Below are positions 1 through 37,289 of a stretch of 64,000 nucleotides of DNA, piece after piece. A program made the translations under genes and the position numbers. How positions within the stretch are numbered: position 1 is the first letter of the stretch; each line of letters begins with the position of its first letter. The notes beneath the pieces were generated by a model. It saw only the letters and a program-made list of their open reading frames with translations. It was not told the DNA's origin and made no database searches. Source of the DNA: Rhodocyclales bacterium GT-UBC (GTDB lineage Bacteria; Pseudomonadota; Gammaproteobacteria; Burkholderiales; Rhodocyclaceae); assembly GCA_003583745.1 (NCBI GenBank), contig QXPY01000003.1, positions 232,052 through 296,051 on the forward strand. Reading direction: 5' to 3'.

Positions 1-1869
1 TTGCAAGACGGCGTGCGCGTGCATGAAGAAACCAAGGTCCATCTGCTGACCTATGCACAGCAGACCGGCGACAAACTTGTAAAACCCTTCATGCTGGTGA
101 TTGCCCGCGACACCACGCACGCCGCCCAGCTGATGGCGACGATTGAATCCAACGACTTCTTTGCCGGACGCTACAAGGGCAAAGTCATCCAGGTGGATTC
201 GAGCCGTTCCGGTGCTGAGGAAGAGGAAATGATTCGGCGTTTGCTGGCCGTGGAAAGCTACGACGAGCCGACCGAGATCGTCATCCACGTGAACATGCTG
301 AAAGAAGGCTGGGACGTGACCAATCTCTACACCATCGTCCCGCTGCGTGCCGCCAATGCCCGCACGCTGATCGAGCAGTCCATCGGGCGCGGTCTGCGTT
401 TGCCATACGGTCGCAAGACTGGAGTCGACGTGGTGGATAGGCTGAACATCATTGCCCACGACAAGTTTCAGGAAGTCATCGACGAGGCGGGACGTGGCGA
501 TTCGCCGATTCGCATGCAGGCCTTGGTGCTAACAGCGGATACGGGCAGTAGCAGCAACCTGAAGAGCATTTCTGTGCAACCCACGGCCAATGCGATGTTG
601 GGTACCGTGACGACGGGCACGCAACAGTTACCCGGTGCCAATGCAGACGGCACGCAATATGGAACCTCCGCGCCAACAACCGTGTTCAAGACCGATGAAC
701 AGCGGCAGATTGCCCAAGTCGCGATGGACGTGATCGTGGAGATTAGTCGCGAGCGGCAGGACGGCCAGCCCCTTGTTGCCAGCACACAAGCGCTGACGCA
801 GGCCAGCATCCAGCAGCAGATTACGCAGCGCGTGCAGGAACGCATGTTGCCCAAGCAGGGTGATTTGCTGGTTACGGAAGCCTTGCCGGTTGCCGACATT
901 GTTCAGCAAACGGTGGCGGTGCTGGTCGAGCACACGATTGATATTCCGCGCATCCTGGTCAAGCCGAAAGGCCCGGTGAAGAGCGGCTACAAGCTGTTCA
1001 ACCTCGACCTGTCGAAGATGAATTTCCAGCCGCAGGACATGGCCTTGGTCGGTCAAGGCCTGAAAACCGGCAAGCAGGTTCTTTACGGGCAGTCGTCGAC
1101 GGTACTGGAATCGCAGCTGGAAAACTACATCGTCCGCGAACTCATCAACTACGACGATGTGTCCTACGACGAGCACGCCGAGTTGATCTACGAACTGGCC
1201 GGACAAGCCGTCGCGCACTTCAAGACCTACCTGAAAACCGACGACGAGCTGCACAACATCCTCGGCAACTACGGCAAGACCATTGCCGAGAACATGCATC
1301 TGCAAATGGCGCTGCACTACTTCGAGGATATTTCGGAATCCGAGGTTGTCATCAGCCAGGGCTTCACGCCGCTCAAGCACTGCGCCTTTACTGCTGAGGG
1401 CGACATTCTGCCGTTACATCAGGCCCCCGATGAGAAGGGCAAGATCGCGCAGTACGTCTATGGCGGTTTCAACAAGTGCGCCTATCCAGTGCAGAAGTTT
1501 CATTCCGACACTGAGCGCGTTCTGGCCTGCGTGCTGGAGCGTGACGCGCTGCGCTGGTTCCGACCAGTGGCTGGGCAGTTCAATATTTACTACCGGTCTG
1601 GTGCCAATCAGCCTGAGTACGTGCCGGACTTCGTTGCAGCAACTGCTGACCATAACCTGATCATCGAGACCAAAGCAGCGAAGGATATGGACGCTGGCGA
1701 CGTGAAGGCCAAAGCCGATGCTGCCGCAACATGGTGCAAGAATGCCAGCGAGTATTCCAAGGCACAGGGCGGTAAGCCGTGGAAATACCTGCTGGTGCCG
1801 CATGATGCGGTGGCCCATAACGCGACGGTGTCTGCGCTGGCGGGTCGATTTGCGGTCGCTTCGTCGTAG
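1..1869 (+). CDS. res: Type III restriction endonuclease Res subunit, C-terminal part
   Basis: The gene is cut by the window edge, so the TTG at base 1 is not taken as its start. What remains is the second helicase domain and the nuclease domain of a type III Res subunit, which translocates and cleaves DNA together with a Mod methyltransferase. Helicase motif VI is visible near residues 125-137 (EQSIGRGLRLPYG). A PD-(D/E)xK nuclease core is visible as D543, E556 and K558 (VPDF, then IIETK). The Walker A part and the mod gene should lie upstream of the window. No frame break is seen. It is part of the accessory island. Confidence 0.85.
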   Translation: MQDGVRVHEETKVHLLTYAQQTGDKLVKPFMLVIARDTTHAAQLMATIESNDFFAGRYKGKVIQVDSSRSGAEEEEMIRRLLAVESYDEPTEIVIHVNMLKEGWDVTNLYTIVPLRAANARTLIEQSIGRGLRLPYGRKTGVDVVDRLNIIAHDKFQEVIDEAGRGDSPIRMQALVLTADTGSSSNLKSISVQPTANAMLGTVTTGTQQLPGANADGTQYGTSAPTTVFKTDEQRQIAQVAMDVIVEISRERQDGQPLVASTQALTQASIQQQITQRVQERMLPKQGDLLVTEALPVADIVQQTVAVLVEHTIDIPRILVKPKGPVKSGYKLFNLDLSKMNFQPQDMALVGQGLKTGKQVLYGQSSTVLESQLENYIVRELINYDDVSYDEHAELIYELAGQAVAHFKTYLKTDDELHNILGNYGKTIAENMHLQMALHYFEDISESEVVISQGFTPLKHCAFTAEGDILPLHQAPDEKGKIAQYVYGGFNKCAYPVQKFHSDTERVLACVLERDALRWFRPVAGQFNIYYRSGANQPEYVPDFVAATADHNLIIETKAAKDMDAGDVKAKADAAATWCKNASEYSKAQGGKPWKYLLVPHDAVAHNATVSALAGRFAVASS

Positions 1870-1895
1870 CAAAGAATTAAAGGGAGTAACGACGT

Positions 1896-3167
1896 TTGAC
1901 CCAAGAACAACCGGAAGGGGAAAAGAAGAAGCTCGTCCTGACCCCGCGCAAAAAGGTAGCCGTCGATATCGACGGGCAGACACTCTACGTCCGACATTTG
2001 TCGGTCGGCGATATCCGGTTGCTTTCGCCCCTGGTTGAAGCGCCCGAATTCACAGGTGATTTGCGGAAACTCGGTGAAGCCGCGATCAAGTGTTTAGCAT
2101 CGACCTCTCAAGATGCCGAAGACCGAACTGCATTGGACGACTCGCTATTCAAGGCATTGTCGGAATCAGACCTTTCGACCATAGCCAGGACTATCGCAGA
2201 CGTAAGCAATCTCGGTCCGTTACCCGATGGGCTTGCGTGCGATGTTCTCGGTGCAGCAATTAAGCAAGAGTTGGAGCAGCAAAGCGAAAGACTCGCCAAG
2301 ATCGCTAGCGACTTCAAGCAGTCCGTTGATAAGAGCTTTGGCTCGATTAGCGAGAGCGTGCGTAGTGCGTTGACCGACAACATGGTTGGCATGTCTGCAA
2401 TTCAGGAAGCGTTGCGTTCTACGTCGGCACTTGAGTCGCTACGAAAGCAGTACTCAGATTTGAACAGCCCAGGTGCAAGCACCCTTAGTGCTGCGCTCGC
2501 GGCCAGTGCTTTGAAGATTCCCACGGCAAGCGAAAGCCTTCGTCAGGCAATTGAAAAATCATCGTTCTCCAATTCGGCGGCAGAAGCGTTGGCGCGAGGA
2601 CGCAATGAGCACGAGCCGATGGAGTTCATAAACGTTCGTCCGATTGAGTTGCCTGACCCTGAAAAGTCCCCGATGGGGCGAGCGGCTAGGGCAAGCGAAG
2701 AAACTGCGCGGCAAGTTCAAGAAGTTGCTGGCTTAACTGCTGCAATGGCTGCGCAGATTGGCGAGTTGTCGCAAACCATCGTGACGAGGGCAATTCCTGA
2801 GTGGCTAAACAAGATTGAAGGTGATCGACTGTCTGCGCAAGCGACACTTGAACAAGCCCGAGATAGCTTGAAATGGACGAAATGGGCAGTTACCGTTTCT
2901 GTGGTCATGACTGTTGCCATGACCGGATGGCAGGTATGGTTAGCCAGCGAATACAAGAAGGACAACGACGAGCAACAAGAGGTCGCGCTGAAGTTGATGA
3001 GCGAGCAGTTGAAGAACGCTGAAGCCCTAAATCGGCAGCTTGCGGCGGATGCGAAGTCGTACCGAGAAGAGATTGCAGCAGTTCGTGCGGCTGTCGCTGG
3101 TTTAGGCGTACTGAAAGCTATCCCGACACCTAACGACAAGAGTGCTGCTCGTCAGTTGGTACGCTGA
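1896..3167 (+). CDS. Unknown membrane-anchored coiled-coil protein beside the restriction gene
   Basis: I do not recognise this 423-aa protein. It starts at TTG 1896 behind a GGGAG element 9 bases upstream, 26 bases after the res stop, so it is probably co-transcribed with res. The N-terminal 90 residues (VDIDGQTLYVRHLSVGDIR) look like a small globular domain faintly reminiscent of phage tail-assembly chaperones. The middle is Ser/Ala-rich and helical. One hydrophobic segment near residues 327-350 (VTVSVVMTVAMTGWQVWLA) is a likely membrane span. The remaining C-terminus is a charged helix, likely coiled coil. Position beside a restriction gene suggests, but does not prove, a defence role. Confidence 0.6.
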   Translation: MTQEQPEGEKKKLVLTPRKKVAVDIDGQTLYVRHLSVGDIRLLSPLVEAPEFTGDLRKLGEAAIKCLASTSQDAEDRTALDDSLFKALSESDLSTIARTIADVSNLGPLPDGLACDVLGAAIKQELEQQSERLAKIASDFKQSVDKSFGSISESVRSALTDNMVGMSAIQEALRSTSALESLRKQYSDLNSPGASTLSAALAASALKIPTASESLRQAIEKSSFSNSAAEALARGRNEHEPMEFINVRPIELPDPEKSPMGRAARASEETARQVQEVAGLTAAMAAQIGELSQTIVTRAIPEWLNKIEGDRLSAQATLEQARDSLKWTKWAVTVSVVMTVAMTGWQVWLASEYKKDNDEQQEVALKLMSEQLKNAEALNRQLAADAKSYREEIAAVRAAVAGLGVLKAIPTPNDKSAARQLVR

Positions 3168-3254
3168 ACACAACGCTCAACGGACGAGAACCGATTTTCG
3201 CCAAAGTTTATTGTCAGTTGATGCCATTAGGATATTTCGGCTAACATGAAAACG

Positions 3255-3271
3255 CGGTGCTTTCTGCACCG
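3255..3271 (+). other. Leader hairpin upstream of the island gene at 3402
   Basis: CGGTGC (3255-3260) pairs with GCACCG (3266-3271) around a 5-base loop. Together with the stronger hairpin at 3314-3349 it makes a two-stem non-coding leader of about 230 bp between the 3167 stop and the gene at 3402. An ATG at 3246 opens a longer frame through this leader, but its translation looks like non-coding sequence. Confidence 0.4.
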
Positions 3272-3313
3272 TGCCGCGTCACTAGAACGCGCCGATTACC
3301 GCCGAAACCAGCG

Positions 3314-3349
3314 AAAGCCACGACTCCCCCGGTCGTGGCTTTTGCTTTT
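3314..3349 (+). terminator. Rho-independent terminator
   Basis: AAAGCCACGAC (3314-3324) pairs perfectly with GTCGTGGCTTT (3332-3342) around a 7-base loop and is followed by the T-rich run TGCTTTT. It would end transcription of the restriction-side genes or act as an attenuator for the gene at 3402. Confidence 0.8.
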
Positions 3350-3401
3350 CTGGACTGCGGCATGTCGCCGATGCGGCTCAACTAATCATGGAGTCCTCTC
3401 A

Positions 3402-3740
3402 ATGAGACAAGAATCTGGCATCAACCAATCCATCGGCACGTCCAGCCAGCCGCCAGCTAACGAGCACACGCATGCACTTTTCAAACTTGGCCAGATTGTC
3501 GCCACCCCCGCATTGTTGGAGCATCTTGTCGAACACTGCACGCATCCTGATCCCTTCATCCGTCGGCACGTTCGCGGTGACTGGGGAAGCGTGCCGACGG
3601 AAGATGCACGCGAAAACGACTTCTCGGTGCTGAACGGCTTTCGCGTGTTGTCAGCCTACGAGGTTGGTGGCAAGCGATTCTGGATTATCACCGAGGCCGA
3701 CCGATCAGTAACCACGCTGCTGTTCCCAAGCGAGTATTGA
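3402..3740 (+). CDS. Small 'plasmid-related' protein of integrative elements
   Basis: This 112-aa protein of unknown function contains the conserved run RHVRGDWG, then ENDFSVLNGFRVLSAY and WIITEADRSVTTLLFPSEY. That pattern is familiar from small proteins encoded on integrative and conjugative elements and plasmids. I chose ATG 3402 because a GGAG lies about 8 bases upstream and conservation starts soon after. An earlier ATG at 3246 would add 52 residues read through a hairpin and a terminator. The gene stands alone between the terminator and the resolvase. Its biochemical role is unknown; the assignment to the family is from memory of its motifs. Confidence 0.7.
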   Translation: MRQESGINQSIGTSSQPPANEHTHALFKLGQIVATPALLEHLVEHCTHPDPFIRRHVRGDWGSVPTEDARENDFSVLNGFRVLSAYEVGGKRFWIITEADRSVTTLLFPSEY

Positions 3741-3792
3741 CCACGCTTCCCAGTGCAACCGATTTGGAGCTTGCCGTACACGGAGAAATTAT

Positions 3793-3807
3793 TGCGACAG
3801 TGTCGCA
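3793..3807. repeat. Palindrome upstream of the resolvase (possible res site)
   Basis: TGCGACA (3793-3799) and TGTCGCA (3801-3807) form a 7-bp inverted repeat around one central base, about 105 bp before the resolvase start. Serine resolvases usually bind inverted sites just upstream of their own gene, so this is a candidate subsite of res or an operator. Only one clear dyad is seen in the 172-bp gap. Confidence 0.4.
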
Positions 3808-3912
3808 GCAATTGAAGTATCGAAACTGCGGCGTCAAAAAGTGACCACTTTCTAACGGTAGCTTCTGCCCTGTTGGAAACATACCGTTCAACCATTTTCA
3901 ACACACTCGAAC

Positions 3913-4527
3913 ATGCCAACACTACTTTCCGACACCGGCGCAGCGGCGTCACAGCGCATTTTTGCGTATGCCCGTGTTTCAACGGTTGAGCAGCTCACCG
4001 AAAACCAGCGTGAGCAGATTGCCCGTGCGGGCTACAACATTCCGCCCAAACGATTTATCGATGAGCAGATTTCCGGCTCCGTGCCGGCAGCACAACGTCC
4101 TGGTTTTCAGCGGCTGCTTGGGAGAATGGATGACGGCGATACCTTGGTCGTAACCAAGCTTGACCGCATTGGCAGGGACTCCATCGACGTGCAGCAGACC
4201 GTCGAGCGATTCCAAAGTGAGGGCATTCGGCTGGTTGTATTGCAGCTTGGCAACCTTGATCTGACATCATCAGCTGGGGCTCTGATGGTCAAAATGCTGG
4301 CGGCGGTGGCTGACTTTGAGCGAGATTTGATTATTGAACGAACCCAAGCCGGTCAGGCTCGTGCCCGCGCTGCTGGCAAGCACATGGGGCGACCGGCCAA
4401 AACCACTCCCGATCAGCAGCGCGTGATTCTGGAACGACTGGCCGCCGGGGCAACCGTCAGCGGCATGGCCGAAGCCTATCAAGTTAGCAGGGCCACCATT
4501 ATCGCTATTAGAAATGCGGCGCTGTGA
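3913..4527 (+). CDS. Serine recombinase (Tn3-family resolvase / DNA invertase)
   Basis: This 204-aa site-specific recombinase has the catalytic domain at the N-terminus: YARVST places the nucleophile at Ser23, and KLDRIGRDS is the arginine-bearing active-site loop. A long helix (MLAAVADFERDLIIERTQAG) precedes GRPAK and a C-terminal helix-turn-helix (GATVSGMAEAYQVSRATIIAIR). The length matches the small resolvase/invertase group. It probably resolves multimers or cointegrates of the island or of an embedded transposon. No transposase lies next to it. The 172-bp region upstream contains a palindrome that may be its binding site. Confidence 0.88.
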   Translation: MPTLLSDTGAAASQRIFAYARVSTVEQLTENQREQIARAGYNIPPKRFIDEQISGSVPAAQRPGFQRLLGRMDDGDTLVVTKLDRIGRDSIDVQQTVERFQSEGIRLVVLQLGNLDLTSSAGALMVKMLAAVADFERDLIIERTQAGQARARAAGKHMGRPAKTTPDQQRVILERLAAGATVSGMAEAYQVSRATIIAIRNAAL

Positions 4528-4574
4528 TTAGCGGGCGTAGGCAGCTTGGTAGCGAATATTCGGTCGCGTGATCC

Positions 4575-5099
4575 CTACGGCGGAAATCTCAGTGTGGAAA
4601 ACGAGCGACCCGCCTGAACGGCGCGGCGCTCGATGTCCGCTGCCGAGTTAATCAATCCCTTTTGCTCTAGAAAAATTAGAAAAGCACGAGTGCTGATCTT
4701 CCTGCAGTTGTCCGGCACCAAGAAGCTGGCGCGTGCAATCTTGTGGTCTTCAAACAGGAATACGCCGGTCTTCGGTGGCACTTTGAGCGCGAAATCGTTC
4801 ATCGTCTCCTGAATCGCCAGTTCGCCTAGGTTGCGGGTTCGAGCCGATGGGTTCTCGCTCACGGCTTGCTTGAAGTGGTCGAAGGTCTTGGTAGGCAGGA
4901 CGGGAATCTGCGCCGACGCAACCCATGCCGCCAACTTGTTGCTGGTCGGTGTCTGGTTTCGGGTGACTTCATGCACCACCATATCCACCACCATGACCGT
5001 CCAGCCCGGTTTGAACAGCACATCGAGCGCATCGGCGTAGGCGAGCGTGATGAGCGGCCCAGCGTCGGGCAGCAGCGCAATATCCTTGGCCGATGACAT
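4575..5099 (-). CDS. PIN-domain toxin of a type II toxin-antitoxin pair
   Basis: The protein begins LLPDAGPLITLAYADAL, the first acidic strand of a PIN/DUF3368-type ribonuclease fold. It continues with VVDMVVHEVTR and later FLFEDHKIARASF, supplying the further acidic residues of the metal site. Such proteins cleave RNA and are silenced by a partner antitoxin. The gene lies directly behind the RHH antitoxin gene. ATG 5099 is used here. A TTG at 5114 would overlap the antitoxin stop (TTGA) and is a reasonable alternative, since the frame is open there. The pair likely stabilises the island. Confidence 0.75.
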   Translation of the reverse strand: MSSAKDIALLPDAGPLITLAYADALDVLFKPGWTVMVVDMVVHEVTRNQTPTSNKLAAWVASAQIPVLPTKTFDHFKQAVSENPSARTRNLGELAIQETMNDFALKVPPKTGVFLFEDHKIARASFLVPDNCRKISTRAFLIFLEQKGLINSAADIERRAVQAGRSFSTLRFPP

Positions 5100-5110
5100 T
5101 GCTACTGTGC

Positions 5111-5458
5111 TCAAGCGGTCGGCAAGGTGTTCAGTTGATCGACCATTCCTTGCGTCGTGGTATCCGGTAGTCGTGGCATGGGCAAATGCGCCTGCGCCAT
5201 CAGCAGGAACAGGTCTTCCTCGCTGTCGATGCCCAGCGCCTGCATAGCTTTGTCGTCACCGATACGCCCCAGCGAAAAATCGAGCAGTACCTTGAAGTTC
5301 TGGTTGCCGGTCGATTCCGCAGCCTCGAAAGTCTCGACGAGGTGGCGCAACTCGGCGTTGAACAAGGCGTTGACCGACGTATCGGTCTTGGCCGCGATCA
5401 CCTTGGCACGCTTGAGCAGATCGCGATCAACAGACCCGGTGAAGTTTACGGTAGCCAT
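5111..5458 (-). CDS. RHH-type antitoxin
   Basis: The 115-aa protein opens with MATVNFTGSVDRDLLKRAKVIAAKTD, the strand-helix-helix of a ribbon-helix-helix DNA-binding domain, followed by a helical tail. The tail ends with an AQAHLPMPRLP segment typical of antitoxins paired with PIN/DUF3368 toxins; that tail normally wraps the toxin. ATG 5458 is preferred over an upstream GTG/ATG because GAGGGG lies 8 bases before it. The short inverted repeat ACAC-6-GTGT upstream (about 5480-5497) may be the autoregulatory operator. It is translationally coupled to the toxin downstream. Confidence 0.75.
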   Translation of the reverse strand: MATVNFTGSVDRDLLKRAKVIAAKTDTSVNALFNAELRHLVETFEAAESTGNQNFKVLLDFSLGRIGDDKAMQALGIDSEEDLFLLMAQAHLPMPRLPDTTTQGMVDQLNTLPTA

Positions 5459-5523
5459 TCTTGCCCCTCGGCGATTAACACACAAATAAGTGTAGCACGC
5501 GAATATGTGGCGGACTTCTCCCT

Positions 5524-6810
5524 TTAGTATTCAAGCAGGCCCTCAGGTAGTGTTGCGCGGTTGGGTACTCCAATTCTTCCACTTGGCCGACGACGAGCAA
5601 CCGATGCGCTCAAACAGTTGTCGCAAGTGCGGCAAGGTGACGCACGTTCGTCGAAATATTGCAGTAACGTTGCGCTCCGGCATGCGCTCTCTGTGCAGAG
5701 CGCCACCAGGGCGTTCAACCGATGGAGAGCGATACTCTTGCGATTTGGGTCGGCAATGCCGCGTTTAAGCATTGCAGACCTGGCGGCTGCATCCTTTTTG
5801 CTGAAGGCGAGCCACGCGTCGGCGGGTTTTCCGTCGCGACCAGCGCGTCCAGTTTCCTGATAATAGCTCTCGATGGATGATGGTATGTCGGCGTGGGCGA
5901 CGAAGCGAACATCGGGTTTGTTAATGCCCATACCGAAGGCGATGGTTGCAACCATCACCACACCATCCCCATTCATAAACAAGTCAAGGTTTTGCTGCCG
6001 TATGCCTGCACTCAGGTCTGCGTGATAGGGCAATGCTCTTATGCCGCGTTCGTTTAGGAACGCGGCAGTGCACTCCACACTGTTCTTTGACAGGCAGTAG
6101 ACGATCCCGGTACTACCAAGGTGTTTCGATTCGATGAAGTCCGCCAGTTGGCGGTAAACATTCCCCTTTGGGACGATCTGATATCGAATATTCGGACGCG
6201 AAAAACTCGATATGCGAACAAGCGCGTCCTCAAGCCGAAGGGTGGTAATAATTTCGGACCGTGTATTTCGATCTGCGGTTGCCGTCAGTGCGATTCTCGG
6301 CACATCGGGAAACCGGGCGACGATTTCACCGAGTCGTAGGTAATCCCGCCGAAAGTCGTGTCCCCATTGTGCAAGGCAATGCGCTTCGTCGAATGCAAAA
6401 AGTGAAATTTTGTCCTTGGCGACGCAAGAGTCCAGAAGCGACAAGAATCGTGGCGATAAGAGGCGTTCTGGCGATACGTAGAGTAAATCGTAGCGCCCAG
6501 CCATGAACGCTGCTTCAACCTCCGATTGCTCTTTACGCGAAAGCGTCGAGGTCAAGTATGCTGCGTCAATCCAGTGCCCTTTGAGGTCGGTCACCTGATC
6601 CTGCATCAAGGCAATCAAGGGTGACACGACAATAGCTGTTCCGTCGCGCATGAGTGCCGGTATCGTGTAGCACAGCGACTTCCCGGCGCCTGTTGGCATT
6701 AGGGCAAATGCATTGCCTCCATCAGCCACATGCTGAATGATCTCTTCTTGATGGTGGCGAAATGTACGGTGTCCGAAAGTGTAACGGAGTACGGATTGTG
6801 GGGTAATCAT
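5524..6810 (-). CDS. RecQ-family ATP-dependent DNA helicase, short form
   Basis: This 428-aa 3'-5' helicase has Walker A MPTGAGKS (K44), Walker B DEAH at 141-144 with the RecQ aromatic loop AQWGHDFR, and motif VI QETGRAGRDG (318-327). A RecQ zinc-binding set follows: C377, C393, C396 and C399. It stops soon after, so the winged-helix and HRDC domains of full-length RecQ are missing or vestigial. The start ATG lies 10 bases behind the stop of the rolling-circle initiator gene, and the ribosome site overlaps that stop, so the two are translationally coupled. This suggests it unwinds the element's own DNA during replication. Confidence 0.85.
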   Translation of the reverse strand: MITPQSVLRYTFGHRTFRHHQEEIIQHVADGGNAFALMPTGAGKSLCYTIPALMRDGTAIVVSPLIALMQDQVTDLKGHWIDAAYLTSTLSRKEQSEVEAAFMAGRYDLLYVSPERLLSPRFLSLLDSCVAKDKISLFAFDEAHCLAQWGHDFRRDYLRLGEIVARFPDVPRIALTATADRNTRSEIITTLRLEDALVRISSFSRPNIRYQIVPKGNVYRQLADFIESKHLGSTGIVYCLSKNSVECTAAFLNERGIRALPYHADLSAGIRQQNLDLFMNGDGVVMVATIAFGMGINKPDVRFVAHADIPSSIESYYQETGRAGRDGKPADAWLAFSKKDAAARSAMLKRGIADPNRKSIALHRLNALVALCTESACRSATLLQYFDERASPCRTCDNCLSASVARRRPSGRIGVPNRATLPEGLLEY

Positions 6811-6820
6811 GACATCACCC

Positions 6821-7978
6821 CTAAATCACGAACGGCTGGCCGTTCAGGATGATTAGTTCGTCCATTTGGCCCGGGGGGACGATGACAGTGCCGATTCCGC
6901 TGCCCTGCCGACTGATTGCGTTCGGCGGATAGTAACAACGTGTGCCATACGCCCAATCTGGAATCGGCAACAGCCGATCCATGCAAAAAATATCCTTCAG
7001 GTGAACCAACGGCTGCGGTTCCGGTTGACGATCTTGCGAGACGTCAATGCCAACCTTATCCATGATCCCTTTGGCGTATTTCGAGACTGAGCTGCGGCTT
7101 TTGAACTGAGCACGAAGTGGAACCCCATGCAGCCAGAGCTGATAGGCGCGGGCCTCAGCCGAGGTCAGCAGGGCAATCTCATCTTCAGTCAAAACAGGTT
7201 GGATTGCGTAATTGACGTTGTATCGCCCGAGAATCTCAAAGAACAGATCGGCAGTGTCGATATCACGCCATGCTGATACCCGTTGCAAGTTTCGGTTCTT
7301 CAGTTCAGAGCTGAACAGCTTGATTTCAGCCCGGATGGCGTCTTCCACCCAGTCCATGAGTTTCGACTGGTAGAAACCGCAGCGCTTCCATTCCGACCGC
7401 AACTGGGCCCATTTGGCATACAGCGACAGCACGTGATACTTGGACCGCCGCTGGCCTACGTATCCGATGCCGATTGCGGTTACTAGCGAACGCCATTTCC
7501 CTTCTGGGGTGTTCTCATCGATGGCATCGATAATGGCGATGATGTCCTTAGACGGGCACGCAAAATTTCCGGTCAGATGGACTTCGGTAAGCCAGACTGC
7601 GCCTTTCCGCCAGTCCTCGCGATCCTGCGGATCAACTTTGATTCCGTACTGCCGTGTGATGTGATCGAAGACGGCGTGGCAGTAGTCCGGCAACGATGCG
7701 TGCCCGAAGACGTTGTGGCGTTGAAGCACCTTGGGCGGGCAAACATATAACTCCAACTCGTTTGCGTACCCGTCGTCGCCGATACGTTTCGACTTGATGT
7801 ACTCGTCCTCCCGATTTCGCTTCGAAGGTGAGCAGGAACCCGCAGGTACAAAGCCGAACGTATCATCAGCAAGGTAAAGCACTTGCCCTAACGGCTTGTG
7901 GCGGCATGGGCCAGTGACACGCATCCGGTCGATATGGATGTGTTTCACTGGCTTGAGGCGATTAGATCTGGCTGGCAT
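6821..7978 (-). CDS. Gene II/X-family rolling-circle replication initiator
   Basis: The segment ELELYVCPPKVLQRHNVFG closely resembles the KVLQGHNVFG hallmark of filamentous-phage gene II proteins. Those proteins nick the origin and start rolling-circle replication through a tyrosine. The C-terminal half (SSVSKYAKGIMDKVGIDV, then PLVHLKDIF) fits the same family. I use ATG 7978 because homologous sequence begins right after it (KHIHIDRMRVTG). ATG 8074 and GTG 8134 are also in frame, but ATG 8074 abuts a strong hairpin. No coat, zot or secretion genes are nearby, so this is not a complete inovirus. It lies between a RepA-like gene and a RecQ helicase. Confidence 0.72.
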   Translation of the reverse strand: MPARSNRLKPVKHIHIDRMRVTGPCRHKPLGQVLYLADDTFGFVPAGSCSPSKRNREDEYIKSKRIGDDGYANELELYVCPPKVLQRHNVFGHASLPDYCHAVFDHITRQYGIKVDPQDREDWRKGAVWLTEVHLTGNFACPSKDIIAIIDAIDENTPEGKWRSLVTAIGIGYVGQRRSKYHVLSLYAKWAQLRSEWKRCGFYQSKLMDWVEDAIRAEIKLFSSELKNRNLQRVSAWRDIDTADLFFEILGRYNVNYAIQPVLTEDEIALLTSAEARAYQLWLHGVPLRAQFKSRSSVSKYAKGIMDKVGIDVSQDRQPEPQPLVHLKDIFCMDRLLPIPDWAYGTRCYYPPNAISRQGSGIGTVIVPPGQMDELIILNGQPFVI

Positions 7979-8074
7979 GGTTGCAAATTCCGTGTTTGAC
8001 GCACTTGTGCGCAAATTGCGAACAAATGTGATGTTGTATACGCGCTCGTGGCGATCAATGGGTCGAGCTGACAT

Positions 8075-8107
8075 GGGCTGCAATTTGCAATTCCGCAATT
8101 GCAGCCC
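8075..8107. repeat. 11-bp inverted repeat with three GCAATT repeats before the initiator gene
   Basis: GGGCTGCAATT (8075-8085) and AATTGCAGCCC (8097-8107) are perfect 11-bp arms around 11 bases. GCAATT occurs three times, at 8080, 8087 and 8095. It sits directly upstream of an in-frame ATG of the initiator gene (8074) and within the gap after the preceding stop. It could be the nicking origin, an initiator-binding operator, or a translational block. Confidence 0.55.
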
Positions 8108-8112
8108 GCCAT

Positions 8113-9138
8113 TTACTCGGGAATGTCTTCCCACCCTTGGTCGGTCGAAGTCGCCGGGGGCTTCTTCAGTTTTAGGCGCGACACGTCACGGCAGACAGTT
8201 GCGGCATCAACCTCCAAGACCTTCGCGATCTCGCGCTGCTGGATTCCTGCTTCCAGCAACTGCTTCACTTTTTCGCGGCGCTCAAACAGTTCAAGCTTTT
8301 TCGCACTCTCGGCAGACTGATTGAAGATTTCCCATCCGAAGCGCAGTTCTTGATCGACGATCAAGTGCCAGAAGTAGAAGCTGCTTGGCCCAACATCAAA
8401 AGTCGAGGTCTTCTGCCGGAAAACATTGAAACCCGTTCCGTACTCGGTGGGCGCACTTGGGGAGGCAGTGAGGTTGATGTAGTAATTGAGGCCGTCAGGG
8501 AGAATGAGGTCGAGTAGTGGCTCGGCACCGCCTCTGCCGACGCGATGAAAAATCATCGTCGCTATGCCTTGTCGATTCAGATTCTCGATGAGTATGTGAA
8601 AGCTACGTTGATCGGCAGTCTTGTCGGTTTTGGATGGTGTCAGGGCAAACTCCCCGTCCAGAAAGACAACGAGCCTGCAACTTGGAGGCATCTGTTCGAT
8701 GATTGCGCCTAAAGCGGTGGGCGAATACAGGTACCCAGGACTACGAACGTAGTCAGCTCCTCGAAGAAAGAACAAATTCTTTTCCGCTAAGTCGCGATAC
8801 TCATCGTTGGTATCTTTTGCATGTACCAGCTTCAGTTGTTGAAACATTCTCTGCAAGGTACTTGCGCGACTGACAACCAATGTCGATATTGGCGGATGCC
8901 CTGGAAATGGGCTTAAAGCACGTCCAGACGCAGTGCTATAAGCCAGCAGGGTTGTCCACATGGATGCTTCGACATTCGGACCAACGCCAATGAGCAGGTT
9001 GGAGTATTCCGGGAGTAAGTCGGGTTTTAGATACGTATGATCTGGAACTTGGCTAATTGAAACATCGCGCCAGCTCTCTACGCGTTCGCCAAGATCGTTG
9101 CCCCAATCGGCCATTCTTGGAAATGGAGAGTTACGCAT
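8113..9138 (-). CDS. RepA-like RecA-fold protein with degenerate P-loop and C-terminal HTH
   Basis: This 341-aa protein looks like the AAA_25/RepA helicase layout. A glycine-rich turn LLIGVGPNVEASMW sits where Walker A should be, but the GK(S/T) is absent. ISTLVVSRAS follows, then a Walker B-like strand LVVFLDGEFAL and GIATMIFHRVGRGG. Residues from about 285 (RREKVKQLLEAGIQQREIAKVLEVDAATVCRDV) form a helix-turn-helix. Its start overlaps the AlpA gene by 8 bases, implying coupled translation. The fold assignment is inference from motif order; if right, ATP hydrolysis is probably lost and the protein may act as a DNA-binding replication or copy-control factor. Confidence 0.5.
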   Translation of the reverse strand: MRNSPFPRMADWGNDLGERVESWRDVSISQVPDHTYLKPDLLPEYSNLLIGVGPNVEASMWTTLLAYSTASGRALSPFPGHPPISTLVVSRASTLQRMFQQLKLVHAKDTNDEYRDLAEKNLFFLRGADYVRSPGYLYSPTALGAIIEQMPPSCRLVVFLDGEFALTPSKTDKTADQRSFHILIENLNRQGIATMIFHRVGRGGAEPLLDLILPDGLNYYINLTASPSAPTEYGTGFNVFRQKTSTFDVGPSSFYFWHLIVDQELRFGWEIFNQSAESAKKLELFERREKVKQLLEAGIQQREIAKVLEVDAATVCRDVSRLKLKKPPATSTDQGWEDIPE

Positions 9139-9397
9139 CTTGGCCTCCTTTTGTAGGAAGCCGCTTTTGCTTGGCGGTGTTATCGGCGACGCGCTGTTCT
9201 TGTTTGGCGTTACGTATGGCGACGCGTTCCTCTAGCCAAGCGTCAATCTCCTCTTCGATCCAGTAGCTGCGCCGACCTATCTTGATCGGCGCGGGAAAGA
9301 GTCCCCGACTGATGTCATCGAAAAAGCTAGAGCGGCTCGACGGATAGCGTTCGCGAGCCTTAGGAGTTGGAATTAGTGTTCGTGACTTTGTAGTCAT
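9131..9397 (-). CDS. AlpA-family excisionase/transcription regulator
   Basis: This small (88-aa) DNA-binding protein has the AlpA pattern RYPSSRSSFFDDISRGLFPAPIKIGRRSYWIEEEIDAWLEERVA: a MerR-like winged helix that reads a site near the integrase gene. Family members switch on integrase or serve as excisionase. ATG 9397 follows GGGGAA with good spacing; upstream codons in the same frame are not needed. The end overlaps the next gene. Repeats GAYGCGTCA lie just upstream and may be its own operator. Confidence 0.8.
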   Translation of the reverse strand: MTTKSRTLIPTPKARERYPSSRSSFFDDISRGLFPAPIKIGRRSYWIEEEIDAWLEERVAIRNAKQEQRVADNTAKQKRLPTKGGQDA

Positions 9398-9724
9398 GGC
9401 ATTCCCCATGGTCAAGTAAATACCCGCGGGGACGCCGAATGCGTGACAAGTCAGACGCGTCAATGAGATGCGTCATAGACAAACAAGCAGACAGAATACC
9501 GCCGCGACCAAGTACTCGTTTGTTGTCCGCTCAAGAGTACGTATAGCGCAGCGGTTTTAGAGGAATGTAGTGTAGTGCTGGCCCAAGACTTAATGCTCAG
9601 CCACACCGCCTTCAAACATTTGAGTTATCGCCGATGTGTAGGAGCAGGCTAGCAAGCGAAAATCAGCATGTCAAGAAACTGACAAGCCTTTAATCAGCTG
9701 CGGACCTCAGCGGACTTTCTCGGA
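9398..9724. other. Intergenic region between AlpA and integrase genes, with short repeats
   Basis: No convincing gene is seen in these 327 bases. Near the AlpA start are two copies of GAYGCGTCA (9454-9462, 9467-9475) and a related AATGCGTGA (9438-9446), candidates for AlpA or RepA-like binding. At the other end lie three phased CGGAC boxes, listed separately. Confidence 0.5.
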
Positions 9725-9725
9725 C
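9701..9725. repeat. Three CGGAC boxes at exact 10-bp spacing
   Basis: CGGAC is present at 9701, 9711 and 9721, one helical turn apart, reaching into the integrase stop codon. The sequence AGCGGACTTT around the second box (9709-9718) recurs at 11117-11126 beside the island junction. Helically phased repeats next to an integrase gene suggest accessory (arm-type) sites for integrase or excisionase. Confidence 0.45.
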
Positions 9726-10930
9726 TAGATGACTGGTGTCTTTTCCAATTCCGCCAGGTAAGAGGCCCAGTGCTCAAGGCCTTCGCGTCTTTGCGCCATG
9801 TAGTCGTTCTTGTCGTAAACCTCAACCAATCCGCCCAAGCTGTGATTGAGGCATCGCTCGACCTCCAGAATGCCCATGCCTAGTTTTTTCAGATAGCTTG
9901 CGGCAGTGGAACGAAGGTCGTGAGGCGAGAATTTCCTTCCTCCGAGCAAGTGTTGATTGCGTCTGATCGCTTCGTTCAATGTGCTCTTGTTTGCGGTTTC
10001 GGCTCGGCTTCCGTAGCCCCGTTTTCTGGCCGGTAGTACATGTTCGCTTCCGTCGGCAAGCACCTTCAACTTGGAAAGCCAAACGAGCACCTGAGGCGCA
10101 AGCGGTATGTCATAGGGTCTGGCAGTTTTGACGTTATCGCCCGGTAGGTGCCAAATACCGCTCTGAAAATCGATGTCTGACCAGCGGGCTTTCAGTAGCT
10201 CAGACTTCCTGGTGCAAGTCGCCAATAGGACCTTGAGCATCAGGAGATTATCTTCTCCGAGCTCTTCGCCATGGATGAAGATCAACTTCAGCTCTTCTTC
10301 TGTGAGCATTACCCGAGCACGGCGTGCCTTTGGTTTTCCCAGAATCGCTGACACTTTCAGATTGGAGCACGGGTTTCTCGAAACGGCATGTCGCGCAACG
10401 CCAAAGGCAAGAATTACTGACGTGATTTCGAATACGCGCCGCGCTACGCTTGCGCTTCGCGAGGCAACTTTGCTTACCAGGTCGACGATCTCACGCTCCG
10501 TGACGTCTGGTGCCGGCAGTCCTCCTATTCGAGGAAGTATGTCCTTATCGAGATAGCGCCGTACTTCCGAATGGGTTGATTCTCGAAGATCGTGAACTGC
10601 GAAGTGCAAGTAAGCATCACTGAGTTGCTTGAACGATTGGGTCTGCCGACTACGAAGCGCTGTATTTTGCTTTTCAGCAGCTACGTCGGTTCCGGCATCA
10701 ACTTCAGCACGGAGTTTTGTAGCGATTTTCCTGGCAGACGCCAAGGAAATATCCGGGTAGCCCCCGATGGTGTACTCACGCCCTTTTCCGTGGAATCGGT
10801 ATCTGAATACCCACGATGCCGTGCCTTTGCTGGTCAGAGTGAAGGTAAGGCCTCCGCCGTCACTCTTTCCGGAAAGGGGGAGGCCCGACCTCACCCATGC
10901 CTGTAACTGAACGTCAGTTAGGTTACCCAA
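9725..10930 (-). CDS. int: P4-type tyrosine integrase
   Basis: This 401-aa site-specific recombinase integrates the island. The N-terminal arm-binding domain has the usual GKGREYTIGGYPDISLASAR. The catalytic residues are R241 (TCTRKSELLKARW), H337 and R340 (SPHDLRSTAAS), H363 (LNHSLGG) and the nucleophile Y372 (VEVYDKNDY). The start is TTG 10930 after GAGGG; no better start is in frame. The gene points away from the nearby chromosome junction at about 11,130, the usual arrangement for this family. The target here appears to be a ROK kinase gene rather than a tRNA. Confidence 0.92.
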   Translation of the reverse strand: MGNLTDVQLQAWVRSGLPLSGKSDGGGLTFTLTSKGTASWVFRYRFHGKGREYTIGGYPDISLASARKIATKLRAEVDAGTDVAAEKQNTALRSRQTQSFKQLSDAYLHFAVHDLRESTHSEVRRYLDKDILPRIGGLPAPDVTEREIVDLVSKVASRSASVARRVFEITSVILAFGVARHAVSRNPCSNLKVSAILGKPKARRARVMLTEEELKLIFIHGEELGEDNLLMLKVLLATCTRKSELLKARWSDIDFQSGIWHLPGDNVKTARPYDIPLAPQVLVWLSKLKVLADGSEHVLPARKRGYGSRAETANKSTLNEAIRRNQHLLGGRKFSPHDLRSTAASYLKKLGMGILEVERCLNHSLGGLVEVYDKNDYMAQRREGLEHWASYLAELEKTPVI

Positions 10931-10944
10931 GATGCCCTCGCGAG

Positions 10945-10996
10945 TGTGTAGCTCAAAACGCGACCATTTTAAGCCAGCTACGCGCTGAGCTACACA
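10945..10996. repeat. Inverted repeat upstream of the integrase
   Basis: TGTGTAGCTCA (10945-10955) and TGAGCTACACA (10986-10996) are perfect 11-bp arms 30 bases apart, immediately before the integrase start. They are a likely operator or integrase arm-site pair controlling integrase expression. Confidence 0.5.
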
Positions 10997-11124
10997 AAAA
11001 CACTTGGCTTCAGTCCGACATGTGAGGACAAATCTGGAGAAACGAGGACTGAACGAGCGGAAAGTGCATTGTATTTATTAGTGTTTTATGGACTCGCCGG
11101 CAGTTGCTAGGACACAAGCGGACT

Positions 11125-11166
11125 TTAATCGATTTTTGTGCCGCCGAGGTCGATACCCAGCCGCAT
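11125..11166 (-). pseudogene. 5' remnant of a ROK-family kinase gene cut by island insertion
   Basis: ATG 11166 overlaps the stop of the methyltransferase gene (TGATG) and encodes MRLGIDLGGTKID followed by TAA. MRLGIDLGGTKI is the N-terminal phosphate-binding signature of ROK kinases (glucokinase/NagK/fructokinase group). Nothing downstream continues the protein. The reading frame is lost within a few bases of the expected att point, so the integrase most likely recombined at the codons for GGTKI. The rest of the gene should lie at the far end of the island, outside the window. Confidence 0.75.
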
Positions 11167-11816
11167 CAGACGCGGACCGCGATGCCCTTGACGTTGCCGT
11201 AGGTGGTGGTCAGCGTGCGCAGGACGCTGGCCCCGGCTTCGAGCAGGAGCATGAAGAGATTGCGCTCGGAATACAGGCAGACCGGGCCGTTGATGCCGTA
11301 CTTCTTGATCATCGGCGGGGCCAGTTCGGTAAAACGTTCTTCGACCTCTATATCCCGCCCGGCATAGCCTTCGCTTAGTTCCGAATGCAGGCCGAGAATG
11401 GAAATATAGAGCTTGCCGCCGATCTTCAGATGTAGGAGCAGGCTGCGCACGACGCGGCGGGCTTCGTCATAGGGCAGGCTGCACAGGCCGCGGCGCAGGA
11501 CGATGATGTCGAACAGCTCATCGGGCGGCGAGGCGGGCAGTTCCGGCACCGCGCTGGACAGGAAGCGCATTTCATCGCGCAGGCCGGCGGCCAGAATGCG
11601 ACCTTCGGCATCCTGCTTGCGTTCGTGGCGGTCGGCAACGGTAACCTGCGCGCCCATGCGGGCAAACTGCGTGGCCAACTCGCAGCGCCCGGCCGGCATC
11701 ACCAGTACCGAGACCTTGTGATCGACCCGTTGCCGCTTGATGCATTCTTCCAGTGCATAGCGTTCCAGCTCGTCCGTCCCTGTCTCCAAGGGATTGGCGG
11801 TAAGATGGGCATTCAT
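11166..11816 (-). CDS. Class I SAM-dependent methyltransferase family protein
   Basis: This 216-aa protein has a Rossmann-type methyltransferase layout: VLVMPAGRCELATQFARMGAQVTVADRHER replaces the usual glycine-rich motif I and acidic loop, then LFDIIVLRRGLCSLPY and a KIGGKLYISILG strand. The motif I glycines are partly replaced, so activity is uncertain and the substrate unknown. ATG 11816 follows GGGAGAGA. It formed an operon with the ROK kinase now interrupted. It is the first core gene to the right of the island. Confidence 0.6.
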   Translation of the reverse strand: MNAHLTANPLETGTDELERYALEECIKRQRVDHKVSVLVMPAGRCELATQFARMGAQVTVADRHERKQDAEGRILAAGLRDEMRFLSSAVPELPASPPDELFDIIVLRRGLCSLPYDEARRVVRSLLLHLKIGGKLYISILGLHSELSEGYAGRDIEVEERFTELAPPMIKKYGINGPVCLYSERNLFMLLLEAGASVLRTLTTTYGNVKGIAVRV

Positions 11817-11891
11817 GTGATCTCTCCCTTTTCGGCCCATTTTGCATGAAGGCCGAGCGCTATGACAACCTGAAACACCAAAGGAAAGAAG

Positions 11892-12227
11892 ATGCTGGTC
11901 CGATTCGAATCGAGTGAAACGGCCGAAGTGCTGATGTTTGCCGAGACGGCAAAAACGCTTTTGCAGGCGATGGGCAAGGAAACGACGGCGCGTGGCACCT
12001 TTACCCAGCCGGAAATGCTAGCCGCTGCGGAAGCGCTGCGTCAGGCCGTGGCCCAGTCCGAAGCGGCGCAGCCGCCGGTCGACGAAGACGAGGAACTCGA
12101 CAAGAAACGTAAGGAACCGGTGGTCGTCCTGCGCCAACGTGCCTGGCCGCTGATCGACATGCTGGAAAGAACGGCGCGGGCTGGCAGCAAGGCCCACATC
12201 GTCTGGGAAGCCAGCGCCGATTTCTGA
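11892..12227 (+). CDS. DUF1840 domain-containing protein
   Basis: This 111-aa cytosolic protein begins MLVRFESSETAEVLMFAETAKTLLQAMGKE, the signature of DUF1840, a small family common in betaproteobacteria. An acidic linker (PVDEDEELDKKRKE) separates it from a C-terminal helix VVVLRQRAWPLIDMLERTARAGSKAHIVWEA. The function is not known. It is divergent from the methyltransferase gene and convergent with the gene at 12245-12814. Confidence 0.85.
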   Translation: MLVRFESSETAEVLMFAETAKTLLQAMGKETTARGTFTQPEMLAAAEALRQAVAQSEAAQPPVDEDEELDKKRKEPVVVLRQRAWPLIDMLERTARAGSKAHIVWEASADF

Positions 12228-12244
12228 ACGGCGTTCGACCCGGC

Positions 12245-12814
12245 TCAGAAGAGCTCGATGTCGTCGCCCTGTTCCTTCATTTCCGCCATGTAGTGCTCGA
12301 TGGCTGCCTTGACCGGCATGCCGTGCATGACGGCTTCGAACATGGCGATCTCCTCGCGGGTCGAGTATTTCGCCTTGATCCTGTCCTGCAGGCCGACCCA
12401 TTCGGTCGGGTTGAACAGGCGCCGGTTGTCGCCAACCAGATTGCTCAGGTCTTCCAGGCTCAGCCCGACATGGGCCAGGCGTTGCACCAGTTTGTCGTAG
12501 AACTGGAAGGCGATGATGGCCTGGTGCACCATGCTCGATACGTGCTCGGAGACACCGCTCAGGCTTTGCTTGGCCTGGCCGACGATCCCGTCGTCGGGCA
12601 GTGTCTGGACGGTATCCGAAATGCGCTGCATGTAGCCGGCCATCGTCGTGAAGGAGTCGGTCAGTACTTCCACCGACGAATTGCTGTCCTTCATCGCGGC
12701 TTCGATCTGCATCGCCGCCAGTTCGAGCATCAGCACGGTTTCGCGAACCTGGCTCCAGTTCAGGTCAGGTGCGTGGGCCGAGGTGCCCCGTGGCGGATAG
12801 ATCTGGTCTTGCAT
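12245..12814 (-). CDS. Helical protein with a CheZ-like phosphatase motif
   Basis: The 189-aa protein is almost all helix. Near residues 99-116 it has AIIAFQFYDKLVQRLAHV, which places Asp107 and Gln111 at the same spacing as the catalytic Asp and Gln of CheZ (FQDLTGQ). CheZ dephosphorylates CheY. The rest does not look like a full CheZ, and no chemotaxis genes are close, so this may be a distant phosphatase or merely helical. ATG 12814 follows AAGGAA. It lies 28 bases behind the cupin gene, probably in one transcript. Confidence 0.5.
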   Translation of the reverse strand: MQDQIYPPRGTSAHAPDLNWSQVRETVLMLELAAMQIEAAMKDSNSSVEVLTDSFTTMAGYMQRISDTVQTLPDDGIVGQAKQSLSGVSEHVSSMVHQAIIAFQFYDKLVQRLAHVGLSLEDLSNLVGDNRRLFNPTEWVGLQDRIKAKYSTREEIAMFEAVMHGMPVKAAIEHYMAEMKEQGDDIELF

Positions 12815-12842
12815 CGCTTTTCCTTTGATTCGGGCCGGCCGA

Positions 12843-13217
12843 CTATAGCGCAACAGTGTTTGGCCGCTCCAGCACGACGTAGTGTTTGCGGACGGCTTGC
12901 AGTACTTCGAAACAGCCGGTGAAGCCGGCCGGGATGACGCCGGCCTCCCCCGGGCCGAATTCACTACTATTGCCATGCATATCGCTGATTCGGATGCGGC
13001 CTTCTATGACACAGAAAAACTCATCCTTGCCGGGGGCAAAGGCGATATTCCAGGCACCGGGCTCGCAAGCCCAGATCCCGGCCGAGAGATCGCCGGCAGG
13101 GGCAAGAAAATACTCCTGGGTCGTGCGCAGCGGATTGCCACTGACCAGACGATCCGGACGGGGGCGATCAAACGTGGCGGGCGGGGCGTGTTGCGAAAAG
13201 GCGATCAGTTCGGGCAT
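12843..13217 (-). CDS. Cupin-domain protein (DUF861/Cupin_3 type)
   Basis: This 124-aa single-domain beta-barrel protein has the Cupin_3 pattern AGIWACEPGAWNIAFAPGKDEFFCVIEGRIRISD, then FGPGEAGVIPAGFTGCFEVLQAVRKHYVVLE. Members include ureidoglycine aminohydrolase-like enzymes, but many are uncharacterised. The metal-binding histidines of classic cupins are largely missing here (EFFCVIEG has Glu but no neighbouring His), so a binding role is possible. It precedes the CheZ-like gene in the same direction. Confidence 0.75.
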   Translation of the reverse strand: MPELIAFSQHAPPATFDRPRPDRLVSGNPLRTTQEYFLAPAGDLSAGIWACEPGAWNIAFAPGKDEFFCVIEGRIRISDMHGNSSEFGPGEAGVIPAGFTGCFEVLQAVRKHYVVLERPNTVAL

Positions 13218-13296
13218 CAGGTTTGCGGGCGGAAATTTGCCGGGACATCAGGGTCAAAGGGCGATACTTATCTTAATTTGGCTGGATAATTTACGC

Positions 13297-14013
13297 ATGC
13301 GTTTCTTCAGCAAGTTGCTCACTGTATTGGTGGCGAGCCTCCCTGTCGCAATGGCCGCGCCCCTCGTTGCGGTCGATGTCGGCCATAGCTTGAGCGATGG
13401 TGGGGCGACCAGCGCGCGTGGGCGTAGCGAATTCGAATTCAACCGGATGTTGGCTGGCGTGCTGGCCGATGCTTTACGTGAAAAGCAGATGGCGGTGCGC
13501 GAGATCAATTTTGCGGGCGATATCGGTAGCTTGATCGAGCGCCCGCAGCAGGCCGCCGGGAGTGACTTTTTCATCGCCATCCACCATGACTCGATCAGTG
13601 AAAACTGGCTGAAGTTCTGGGATTGGGATGGCAGCGAACAGAGCTATACGGAGGTCAAACGCGGTTTTGGCCTTTTTGTTTCGGCTCAGAATCCGGATCC
13701 GAAAACCAGCCTGCGGTGTGCTTCAAGCATGGGGGCGATGCTGCGTCGAGCCGGTTTCGTACCCTCTGCATGGCACGGCCGCCGGCACGTCGCGGCCGAT
13801 CTCGCCAACGGTGTCTGGTATTACGACAATCTGGTGGTGTTGTACCGAACGACCTTGCCGGCGGTATTGTTCGAAGCCGGCGTCATCAAGCATCGCGAAG
13901 AGGAACTGGAGCTCCTCGACAGCGAGCGCCAGGCGCGGATGGCCGATGCGCTCGCGAGCGGCATTGCGGCCTGCCTGTCGGTCAGAGAAAAATCGGCTCC
14001 GGTGTCAGAGTGA
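13297..14013 (+). CDS. N-acetylmuramoyl-L-alanine amidase, secreted
   Basis: This 238-aa amidase_3 enzyme splits the amide bond between MurNAc and the peptide stem in the periplasm. The start [21 protein letters not shown] is a signal peptide. The zinc site is visible: H in [14 protein letters not shown] in [10 protein letters not shown] in FFIAIHHDS, and the catalytic Glu in [17 protein letters not shown] 13297 is preferred; a longer open frame upstream runs antisense to the cupin gene. Its last 32 bases overlap the convergent murB gene. It lacks an AMIN domain, so it differs from AmiC. Confidence 0.85.
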
Positions 14014-37215: not shown

Positions 37216-37289
37216 GCGGGCGTCGTATAATGGTAATACCCTAGCTTCCCAAGCTAGAGCCGTGGGTTCGATTCCCATCGCCCGCTCCA
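37216..37289 (+). tRNA. tRNA-Gly (anticodon CCC)
   Basis: A full cloverleaf is visible: acceptor GCGGGCG/CGCCCGC, anticodon stem CTAGC/GCTAG with loop TTCCCAA (anticodon CCC), T-arm GTGGGTTCGATTCCCAT, discriminator T and encoded CCA. It reads GGG codons. No island is inserted at its 3' end. Confidence 0.95.

What the first reader, a model, noticed from the sequence alone, without database searches (positions are those of the whole stretch)
11100..11170. ROK kinase gene cut by the island: attachment site in a protein-coding gene
The frame MRLGIDLGGTKID-stop at 11166-11125 is the start of a ROK-family kinase, still overlapping the upstream methyltransferase stop (TGATG). It ends about 200 bp from the start of a tyrosine integrase. 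Islands of this integrase type more often use tRNA ends. A target in the phosphate-binding codons of a sugar kinase would remove or rewire the kinase and could make the island switchable.
Basis: partly seen in the sequence, partly recalled or inferred. Interest (0 to 1): 0.75.

Follow-up and report, generated by a model that had tools for sequence, protein, structure and literature searches.

The report
Island that swaps a kinase's start
A 23-kb bacterial genomic island sits in the first codons of a sugar-kinase gene but carries a replacement for the lost start, so the kinase gene stays whole and only its upstream region changes; this is a known kind of arrangement at a target gene for which we found no earlier report.

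Summary
It marks one end (attR) of a 23,044-bp island. The kinase is not cut: at the other end, outside the window, the island supplies its own AT-rich start (ATG plus seven codons), joined at GGCGGCAC to the host's remaining codons, leaving an uninterrupted 298-aa ROK gene. Joining the flanks restores the pair found directly adjacent in 27 of 33 same-genus relatives that have the methyltransferase-like gene. Dechloromonas sp. SSB2 carries a different 11.4-kb island at the same core (integrase 58% identical) with a nearly identical replacement start; a genome of another family probably holds a prophage at the same codons. Doubled repeats, probably integrase arm sites, lie near both ends of both islands. 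Related integrases also sit beside protein-gene ends, with no tRNA gene within 1 kb upstream at 36 loci. The mechanism is the 5'-end replacement known from dusA islands; ROK as target is new to us. Changed expression and switching are inferred, not shown.

The parts
11138..11145 (-). attR core GGCGGCAC (codons Gly-Gly and two bases of Thr of the DLGGT motif), the interval in which the crossover is placed
   Evidence: Identical at both island ends and the interval common to this island and the SSB2 island; the exact cut point is inferred
11146..11166 (-). Host-derived first seven codons of the ROK gene (MRLGIDL), overlapping the upstream gene's stop
   Evidence: same position as the ROK start in empty-site relatives
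11125..11166 (-). 13-codon leftover frame MRLGIDLGGTKID-stop; the end with the stop is island DNA
1..11145 (.). The part of the 23,044-bp island that lies in the window; its other end is at G000:C2:220145-220152, about 11.9 kb left of window position 1
9725..10930 (-). Tyrosine integrase, 401 aa
   Evidence: Pfam Phage_integrase, Arm-DNA-bind_3, Phage_int_M; 58% identical to the SSB2 island's integrase
10976..10994 (-). Doubled repeat TGTAGCTCAGCGCGTAGCT, probable integrase arm site; a matching copy lies 63 bp from the core at the other end
   Evidence: Only match in the 64-kb window, 0 expected; other end; SSB2
10945..10955 (+). Inverted copy of the TGTGTAGCTCA half of the repeat (partner 10986-10996)
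9131..9463 (-). AlpA-like regulator, possible excision factor
   Evidence: Pfam Phage_AlpA, 23.7 bits over cut-off 21; role inferred
11166..11840 (-). Methyltransferase-like gene, the host flank
   Evidence: Pfam matches below curated cut-offs; orthologues in 33 of 35 same-genus relatives searched

Best explanation
11100-11170 is the attR end of a 23-kb integrase island whose attachment site is the phosphate-binding DLGGT codons of a ROK sugar-kinase gene. Recombination within GGCGGCAC separated the host's first codons, which stay behind the methyltransferase-like gene as a 13-codon leftover ending in an island-borne stop, from the body of the kinase. At the far end the island supplies a replacement ATG, seven codons and a new upstream region, so the body continues in frame as a full-length kinase gene (shown at sequence level). 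Inferred: the integrase carried out this crossover; the kinase is still made and active; it is no longer coupled to the upstream gene and would return to it on excision. Also inferred, from orientation only: the island-end region that now precedes ROK would precede the integrase gene in the excised circle.
For: An uninterrupted 298-aa ROK gene at the other end with a different start joined at the same core, cores 23,044 bp apart. Flanks joined at the core give the ROK frame overlapping the upstream stop, the arrangement adjacent in 27 of 33 relatives. A second island at the same core in SSB2 whose replacement 21 nt agree at 19 of 21 positions with this island's, while 29 other genus heads reach at most 17 and one, G035, reaches 19. 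Doubled repeats near both ends of both islands, 0.01 or fewer expected per stretch searched (the pattern was drawn from these ends). The 60 nt before the core are 30-35% GC against 69-71% in the gene body in all three cases examined.
Against: No reads or circle junction were available, so excision and activity are not shown. No promoter on the needed strand was found before the restored ROK in either Azonexus-group island. In SSB2 the codon aligned with the presumed catalytic tyrosine reads His next to an undetermined base, so that copy may be inactive or misread. The G427 case rests on two separate contigs that share no arm motif. ROK is missing in three relatives, so keeping it may not matter much.
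Confidence: 0.92

Rival explanations
1. Regulated gene integrity: the island in effect switches the kinase off while integrated, because the new start is not expressed or not translated, and excision restores it.
For: No promoter-like site on the needed strand was found before the restored ROK gene; the gene just inside the far end points away from ROK in both Azonexus-group islands.
Against: The frame and motif are restored exactly, and the replacement codons keep the protein sequence with different bases in two islands and in the probable third, as expected if the product is used.
Confidence: 0.12
2. The far-side ROK gene is a whole second kinase brought by the island, and the host's own kinase was lost.
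For: The far-side gene has a start unlike the host leftover.
Against: The difference stops at the core; the body is 68-77% identical to relatives' ROK genes and is followed by the same two genes as in SSB2 (compare ORFs); only one ROK match is found in the genome.
Confidence: 0.03
3. Chance: the 13-codon frame only resembles a ROK start.
For: It is only 13 codons long.
Against: It stands where relatives' ROK genes start, the break falls at the same codons in SSB2 and probably in G427, and both ends carry the repeats.
Confidence: 0.01

Closest known systems
dusA-specific genomic islands and prophages (Farrugia et al. 2015, PMC4482086; abstract and sections 12, 13, 15 and 18 read)
   Same: Integrase islands that enter near the 5' end of a protein gene at a conserved stretch and replace the gene's 5' end with island sequence, shared by otherwise diverse islands and prophages.
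   Different: Target is ROK rather than dusA, and the core lies in codons of the phosphate-binding motif. The paper's integrases are nearest to Rci; the window's has Arm-DNA-bind_3 and Phage_int_M domains, but a direct comparison was not made. Excision was shown there, not here.
SXT/R391 integrative conjugative elements at prfC (PMC2791158, passages seen)
   Same: Tyrosine integrase, site in the 5' end of a conserved protein gene, nearly identical attP and attB.
   Different: Conjugative elements of about 100 kb; here 23 and 11 kb and conjugation genes were not looked for systematically.
Islands and satellites whose attP carries a replacement for the target gene (PMC10111431 and PMC12884075, passages seen)
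   Same: Post-integration gene stays complete; doubled repeats near attP are also reported for one satellite group in PMC10111431.
   Different: Other target genes and another repeat sequence.
ICEKp1 and ICEclc promoter switching (PMC13023037, passages seen)
   Same: Integrase gene next to the attachment site and reading away from it, so that the element's other end precedes it in the circle.
   Different: Those use tRNA genes and measured promoters; here no promoter was found or tested.

Membership tests
Integrase island in a protein gene's 5' end with 5'-end replacement (dusA type, as a mode of integration) | Island between two copies of a short core inside the target gene | tested here: met
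   GGCGGCACAAA at both ends, 23,044 bp apart
Integrase island in a protein gene's 5' end with 5'-end replacement (dusA type, as a mode of integration) | Target frame complete with an island-derived start | tested here: met
   298-aa ROK gene covering Pfam positions 2-291 of 294, new start
Integrase island in a protein gene's 5' end with 5'-end replacement (dusA type, as a mode of integration) | Uninterrupted target gene in relatives without the island | tested here: met
   27 of 33 relatives with the neighbouring gene
Integrase island in a protein gene's 5' end with 5'-end replacement (dusA type, as a mode of integration) | Excision as a circle that restores the original gene | not testable with these tools
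   No reads or cells
dusA-associated integrase protein family (DAI) | Integrase sequence groups with DAI/Rci proteins | not tested
   No DAI sequence was fetched; only domain content was examined
Regulated gene integrity | Target reading frame interrupted in the integrated state | tested here: not met
   ROK frame complete; loss of expression not excluded
tRNA-targeting islands | tRNA gene at the integrase-side end | tested here: not met
   The only tRNA gene in the window is tRNA-Gly at 37216-37289

The most novel reading that the evidence does not exclude
The island end is an exchangeable start module for a catalytic motif. By entering at DLGGT codons that a working kinase must keep, the integrase secures a target across bacterial families; attP carries a protein-conserved start on one side and an in-frame stop four codons past the Gly-Gly-Thr codons on the other. 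Integration moves the kinase from coupling with the upstream gene to island control, and in the circle the same island region drives the integrase instead. Two integrase lineages may have settled on the same codons separately.
Probability: 0.25. Interest if true: 0.5.

Novelty: new member of a known kind. Interest (0 to 1): 0.36.

Why it matters
It adds a sugar-kinase gene, entered at its catalytic motif, to the protein genes used by islands, with ends placed to within about 8 bp, an inferred attP and many empty-site relatives for comparison. It corrects the idea that the kinase is destroyed: annotation should keep the far-side ROK gene and treat the 13-codon frame as a leftover. It offers a clean case for testing whether islands change the control of the genes they enter.

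Tried and rejected
A genome-contig scan with the single integrase found no relative; the two-row alignment gave 13 loci.

A first impression that both islands share a Phage_CRI replication gene was wrong: the SSB2 gene I had in mind has no Pfam match and no similarity. My first notebook entry states it and is wrong on this point.

tRNA targeting was checked only on the integrase's upstream side; a tRNA gene at the far end of a relative's island is not excluded.

Promoter scans before the restored ROK: none in this island; one in SSB2 but on the opposite strand. The scan covers only sigma-70-type consensus sites.

A shared arm motif for the two G427 contigs was looked for (shared 8-mers) and not found.

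ROK as target in print: the searches (ROK family, glucokinase, fructokinase gene, with integration site, genomic island, prophage, integrase, attB) listed nothing on it; most papers that one search listed matched on the general terms only. A main survey of protein-gene targets (doi 10.1093/nar/gkaa156) is not held and may list it.

The early-stop idea is post hoc. In 3 of 3 ROK leftovers the stop is the fourth codon after Gly-Gly-Thr; of the four Exo_endo_phos-type leftovers read, two stop at the codon after the nine-residue start and two do not. The chance of a stop within four codons in the island sequences is 0.105 and 0.114, but some of these elements are related.

At G360 no intact Exo_endo_phos start was found by the same pattern in the 40 kb read, so the replacement is shown for that target only at G410.

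Full report
What is there. The frame MRLGIDLGGTKID-stop occupies 11166-11125 on the minus strand and overlaps the stop of a methyltransferase-like gene as TGATG. A 401-aa tyrosine integrase with Arm-DNA-bind_3, Phage_int_M and Phage_integrase domains starts at 10930 in the same direction. The methyltransferase name is weak: all three Pfam matches are below the curated cut-offs, and the NCBIfam matches are too.

Where the kinase went. The window is G000:C2:232052-296051. The genome's only ROK match at E 0.001 is C2:219283-220167 on the same strand, E 5e-73. It is an uninterrupted 298-aa gene starting ATG TTA CGC ATT GGA ATT GAC CTT | GGCGGCAC AAAG. The leftover in the window reads ATG CGG CTG GGT ATC GAC CTC | GGCGGCAC AAAAATCGAT TAA. 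The cores are 23,044 bp apart. Joining the flanks at the core gives MRLGIDLGGTKIEIIALADDGREC..., a full kinase frame one codon shorter, overlapping the upstream stop.

Empty sites. The relatives search held 35 other genomes of the genus; 33 have the methyltransferase-like gene. In 27 of these 33 a ROK gene follows directly, within about 60 bp (24 read; G006, G015 and G016 from the coordinates). Of the 24 junctions read, 13 keep the TGATG overlap. The other six of the 33: G019 is occupied by an island; G011 has another gene between; in G035 the two genes lie on different contigs beside what look like kdp genes (names recalled); G004, G013 and G021 have no ROK match at E 1e-20. G023 has ROK without a recognised methyltransferase-like gene, and G032 has neither.

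A second island. In G019 the methyltransferase-like gene is followed by SVRIGIDLGGTKIN-stop, by an integrase 58% identical to the window's and, 11,400 bp on, by an intact ROK gene. Its replacement head CTACGCATTGGAATTGACCTC agrees with this island's TTACGCATTGGAATTGACCTT at 19 of 21 positions. Of 30 other genus heads compared, 29 reach at most 17 and G035 reaches 19. Taking the two islands together, GGCGGCAC is the interval left for the crossover (inference). Gene order on both flanks is the same in both genomes (ORFs). The islands share the integrase, a protein near it (25% over 185 aa) and a protein next to the far end (35% over 147 aa), but the two central proteins compared were unrelated.

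Arm sites. TGTAGCYN5CGTAGCY with up to one mismatch occurs once in the 64-kb window (10976-10994), once in the 15-kb far-side stretch, 63 bp from the core, and twice in the 20-kb G019 stretch, at its two island ends (one of them with a mismatch). The expectation is 0.01 or less in each. The pattern was drawn from these ends, so the numbers test only that it is not found elsewhere.

A probable third case. In G427 (another family, 64% complete) an integrase 45% identical is preceded by VRVGVDLGGTGIA-stop. The genome's only ROK match, on another contig, begins with an AT-rich head ...AAAGTCGGTATTGACTTA|GGCGGCAC beside a prophage-like stretch with a phage lysozyme gene. In G000, G019 and G427 the 60 nt before the core are 32%, 30% and 35% GC against 69-71% in the gene body. 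The G427 contigs share no arm motif, so this case is probable only. In the integrase tree the window and SSB2 proteins form a clade (100/100), and the G427 protein lies outside a supported branch (98/97); the label test does not exclude one origin of ROK targeting.

The integrase's relatives. No tRNA gene was found in the 1 kb upstream of the integrase at 36 loci, three known duplicates included. Several abut protein-gene ends: starts like that of an Exo_endo_phos gene at L061, L065, L067 and L086; 3' ends of ZapD (L073 by Pfam; L071, L072 and L079 by resemblance), YicC (L069 by Pfam; L087 by resemblance) and a PRA-CH gene (L007 by Pfam). At G410 the intact Exo_endo_phos gene lies 2.6 kb from its leftover with a TGTAGCCAGACGCGTAGCC site before it. 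At G360 no intact copy was found by the same pattern in 40 kb. Integrases at E 1e-90 were found in 7 of 399 genomes of the order and 4 of 369 of the class, own genome included in both.

How it most likely works. Shown at sequence level: the junctions, the intact kinase frame, the empty sites and the second island. Inferred: integrase-mediated crossover in GGCGGCAC, continued kinase production from an island-borne start, loss of coupling to the upstream gene, and reversal on excision. The promoter scans do not support a sigma-70 promoter before the restored gene. Because ROK and int point the same way, the region now before ROK would precede int in the circle, the arrangement reported for ICEKp1 and ICEclc (PMC13023037, passages). 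Against present activity of the SSB2 copy: the codon aligned with the presumed catalytic tyrosine (position 372; role recalled) reads His, next to an undetermined base.

Compared with what is known. This is 5'-end replacement as described for dusA islands (PMC4482086; abstract and four sections). SXT/R391 elements likewise enter the 5' end of prfC (PMC2791158, passages). PMC10111431 states that attP usually carries a replacement sequence for the target gene (passages). My searches found no report of a ROK or fructokinase target, but the main survey of such targets could not be read. NCBIfam puts the kinase nearest to fructokinase, below that model's cut-off, so its substrate is open.

Cargo. 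This island carries type III restriction-modification genes, a DrmD-like helicase, a PDC-S06-like protein and a RecQ-type helicase; the SSB2 island carries an AbiE pair.

Verdict. It is a well-supported new example of a known mechanism, of moderate interest.

Noticed in passing
L058 (G035:C27) and L039 (G035:C122): In G035 kdp-like genes (names recalled) follow the methyltransferase-like gene and precede ROK on separate contigs, and the ROK head agrees with the SSB2 island's head at 19 of 21 positions: possibly a scar of a former island.
   Followed up: partly
G004, G013, G021: Three relatives have the methyltransferase-like gene but no ROK match at E 1e-20, so the kinase seems dispensable.
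   Followed up: partly
L049 about 3302-3305 (SSB2 integrase): The codon aligned with the presumed catalytic tyrosine reads CAC (His), next to an undetermined base; inactive integrase or sequencing error.
   Followed up: partly
L095 (G410:C43) 9821-12410: A 2.6-kb element of a related integrase at the start of an Exo_endo_phos gene, leaving a nine-codon leftover and an intact gene at the other end.
   Followed up: partly
window 1-1869 and L002:5935-8904, 10241-12526, 12486-14183: Island cargo resembling type III restriction and modification enzymes, a DrmD-like helicase and a PDC-S06 candidate defence protein.
   Followed up: no
window 6821-8134: A protein matching Phage_CRI (filamentous-phage G2P-type replication protein, E 5e-12) inside an integrase island.
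   Followed up: no
window 3913-4527: A serine resolvase (Resolvase, E 2e-38) in an island that also has a tyrosine integrase.
   Followed up: no
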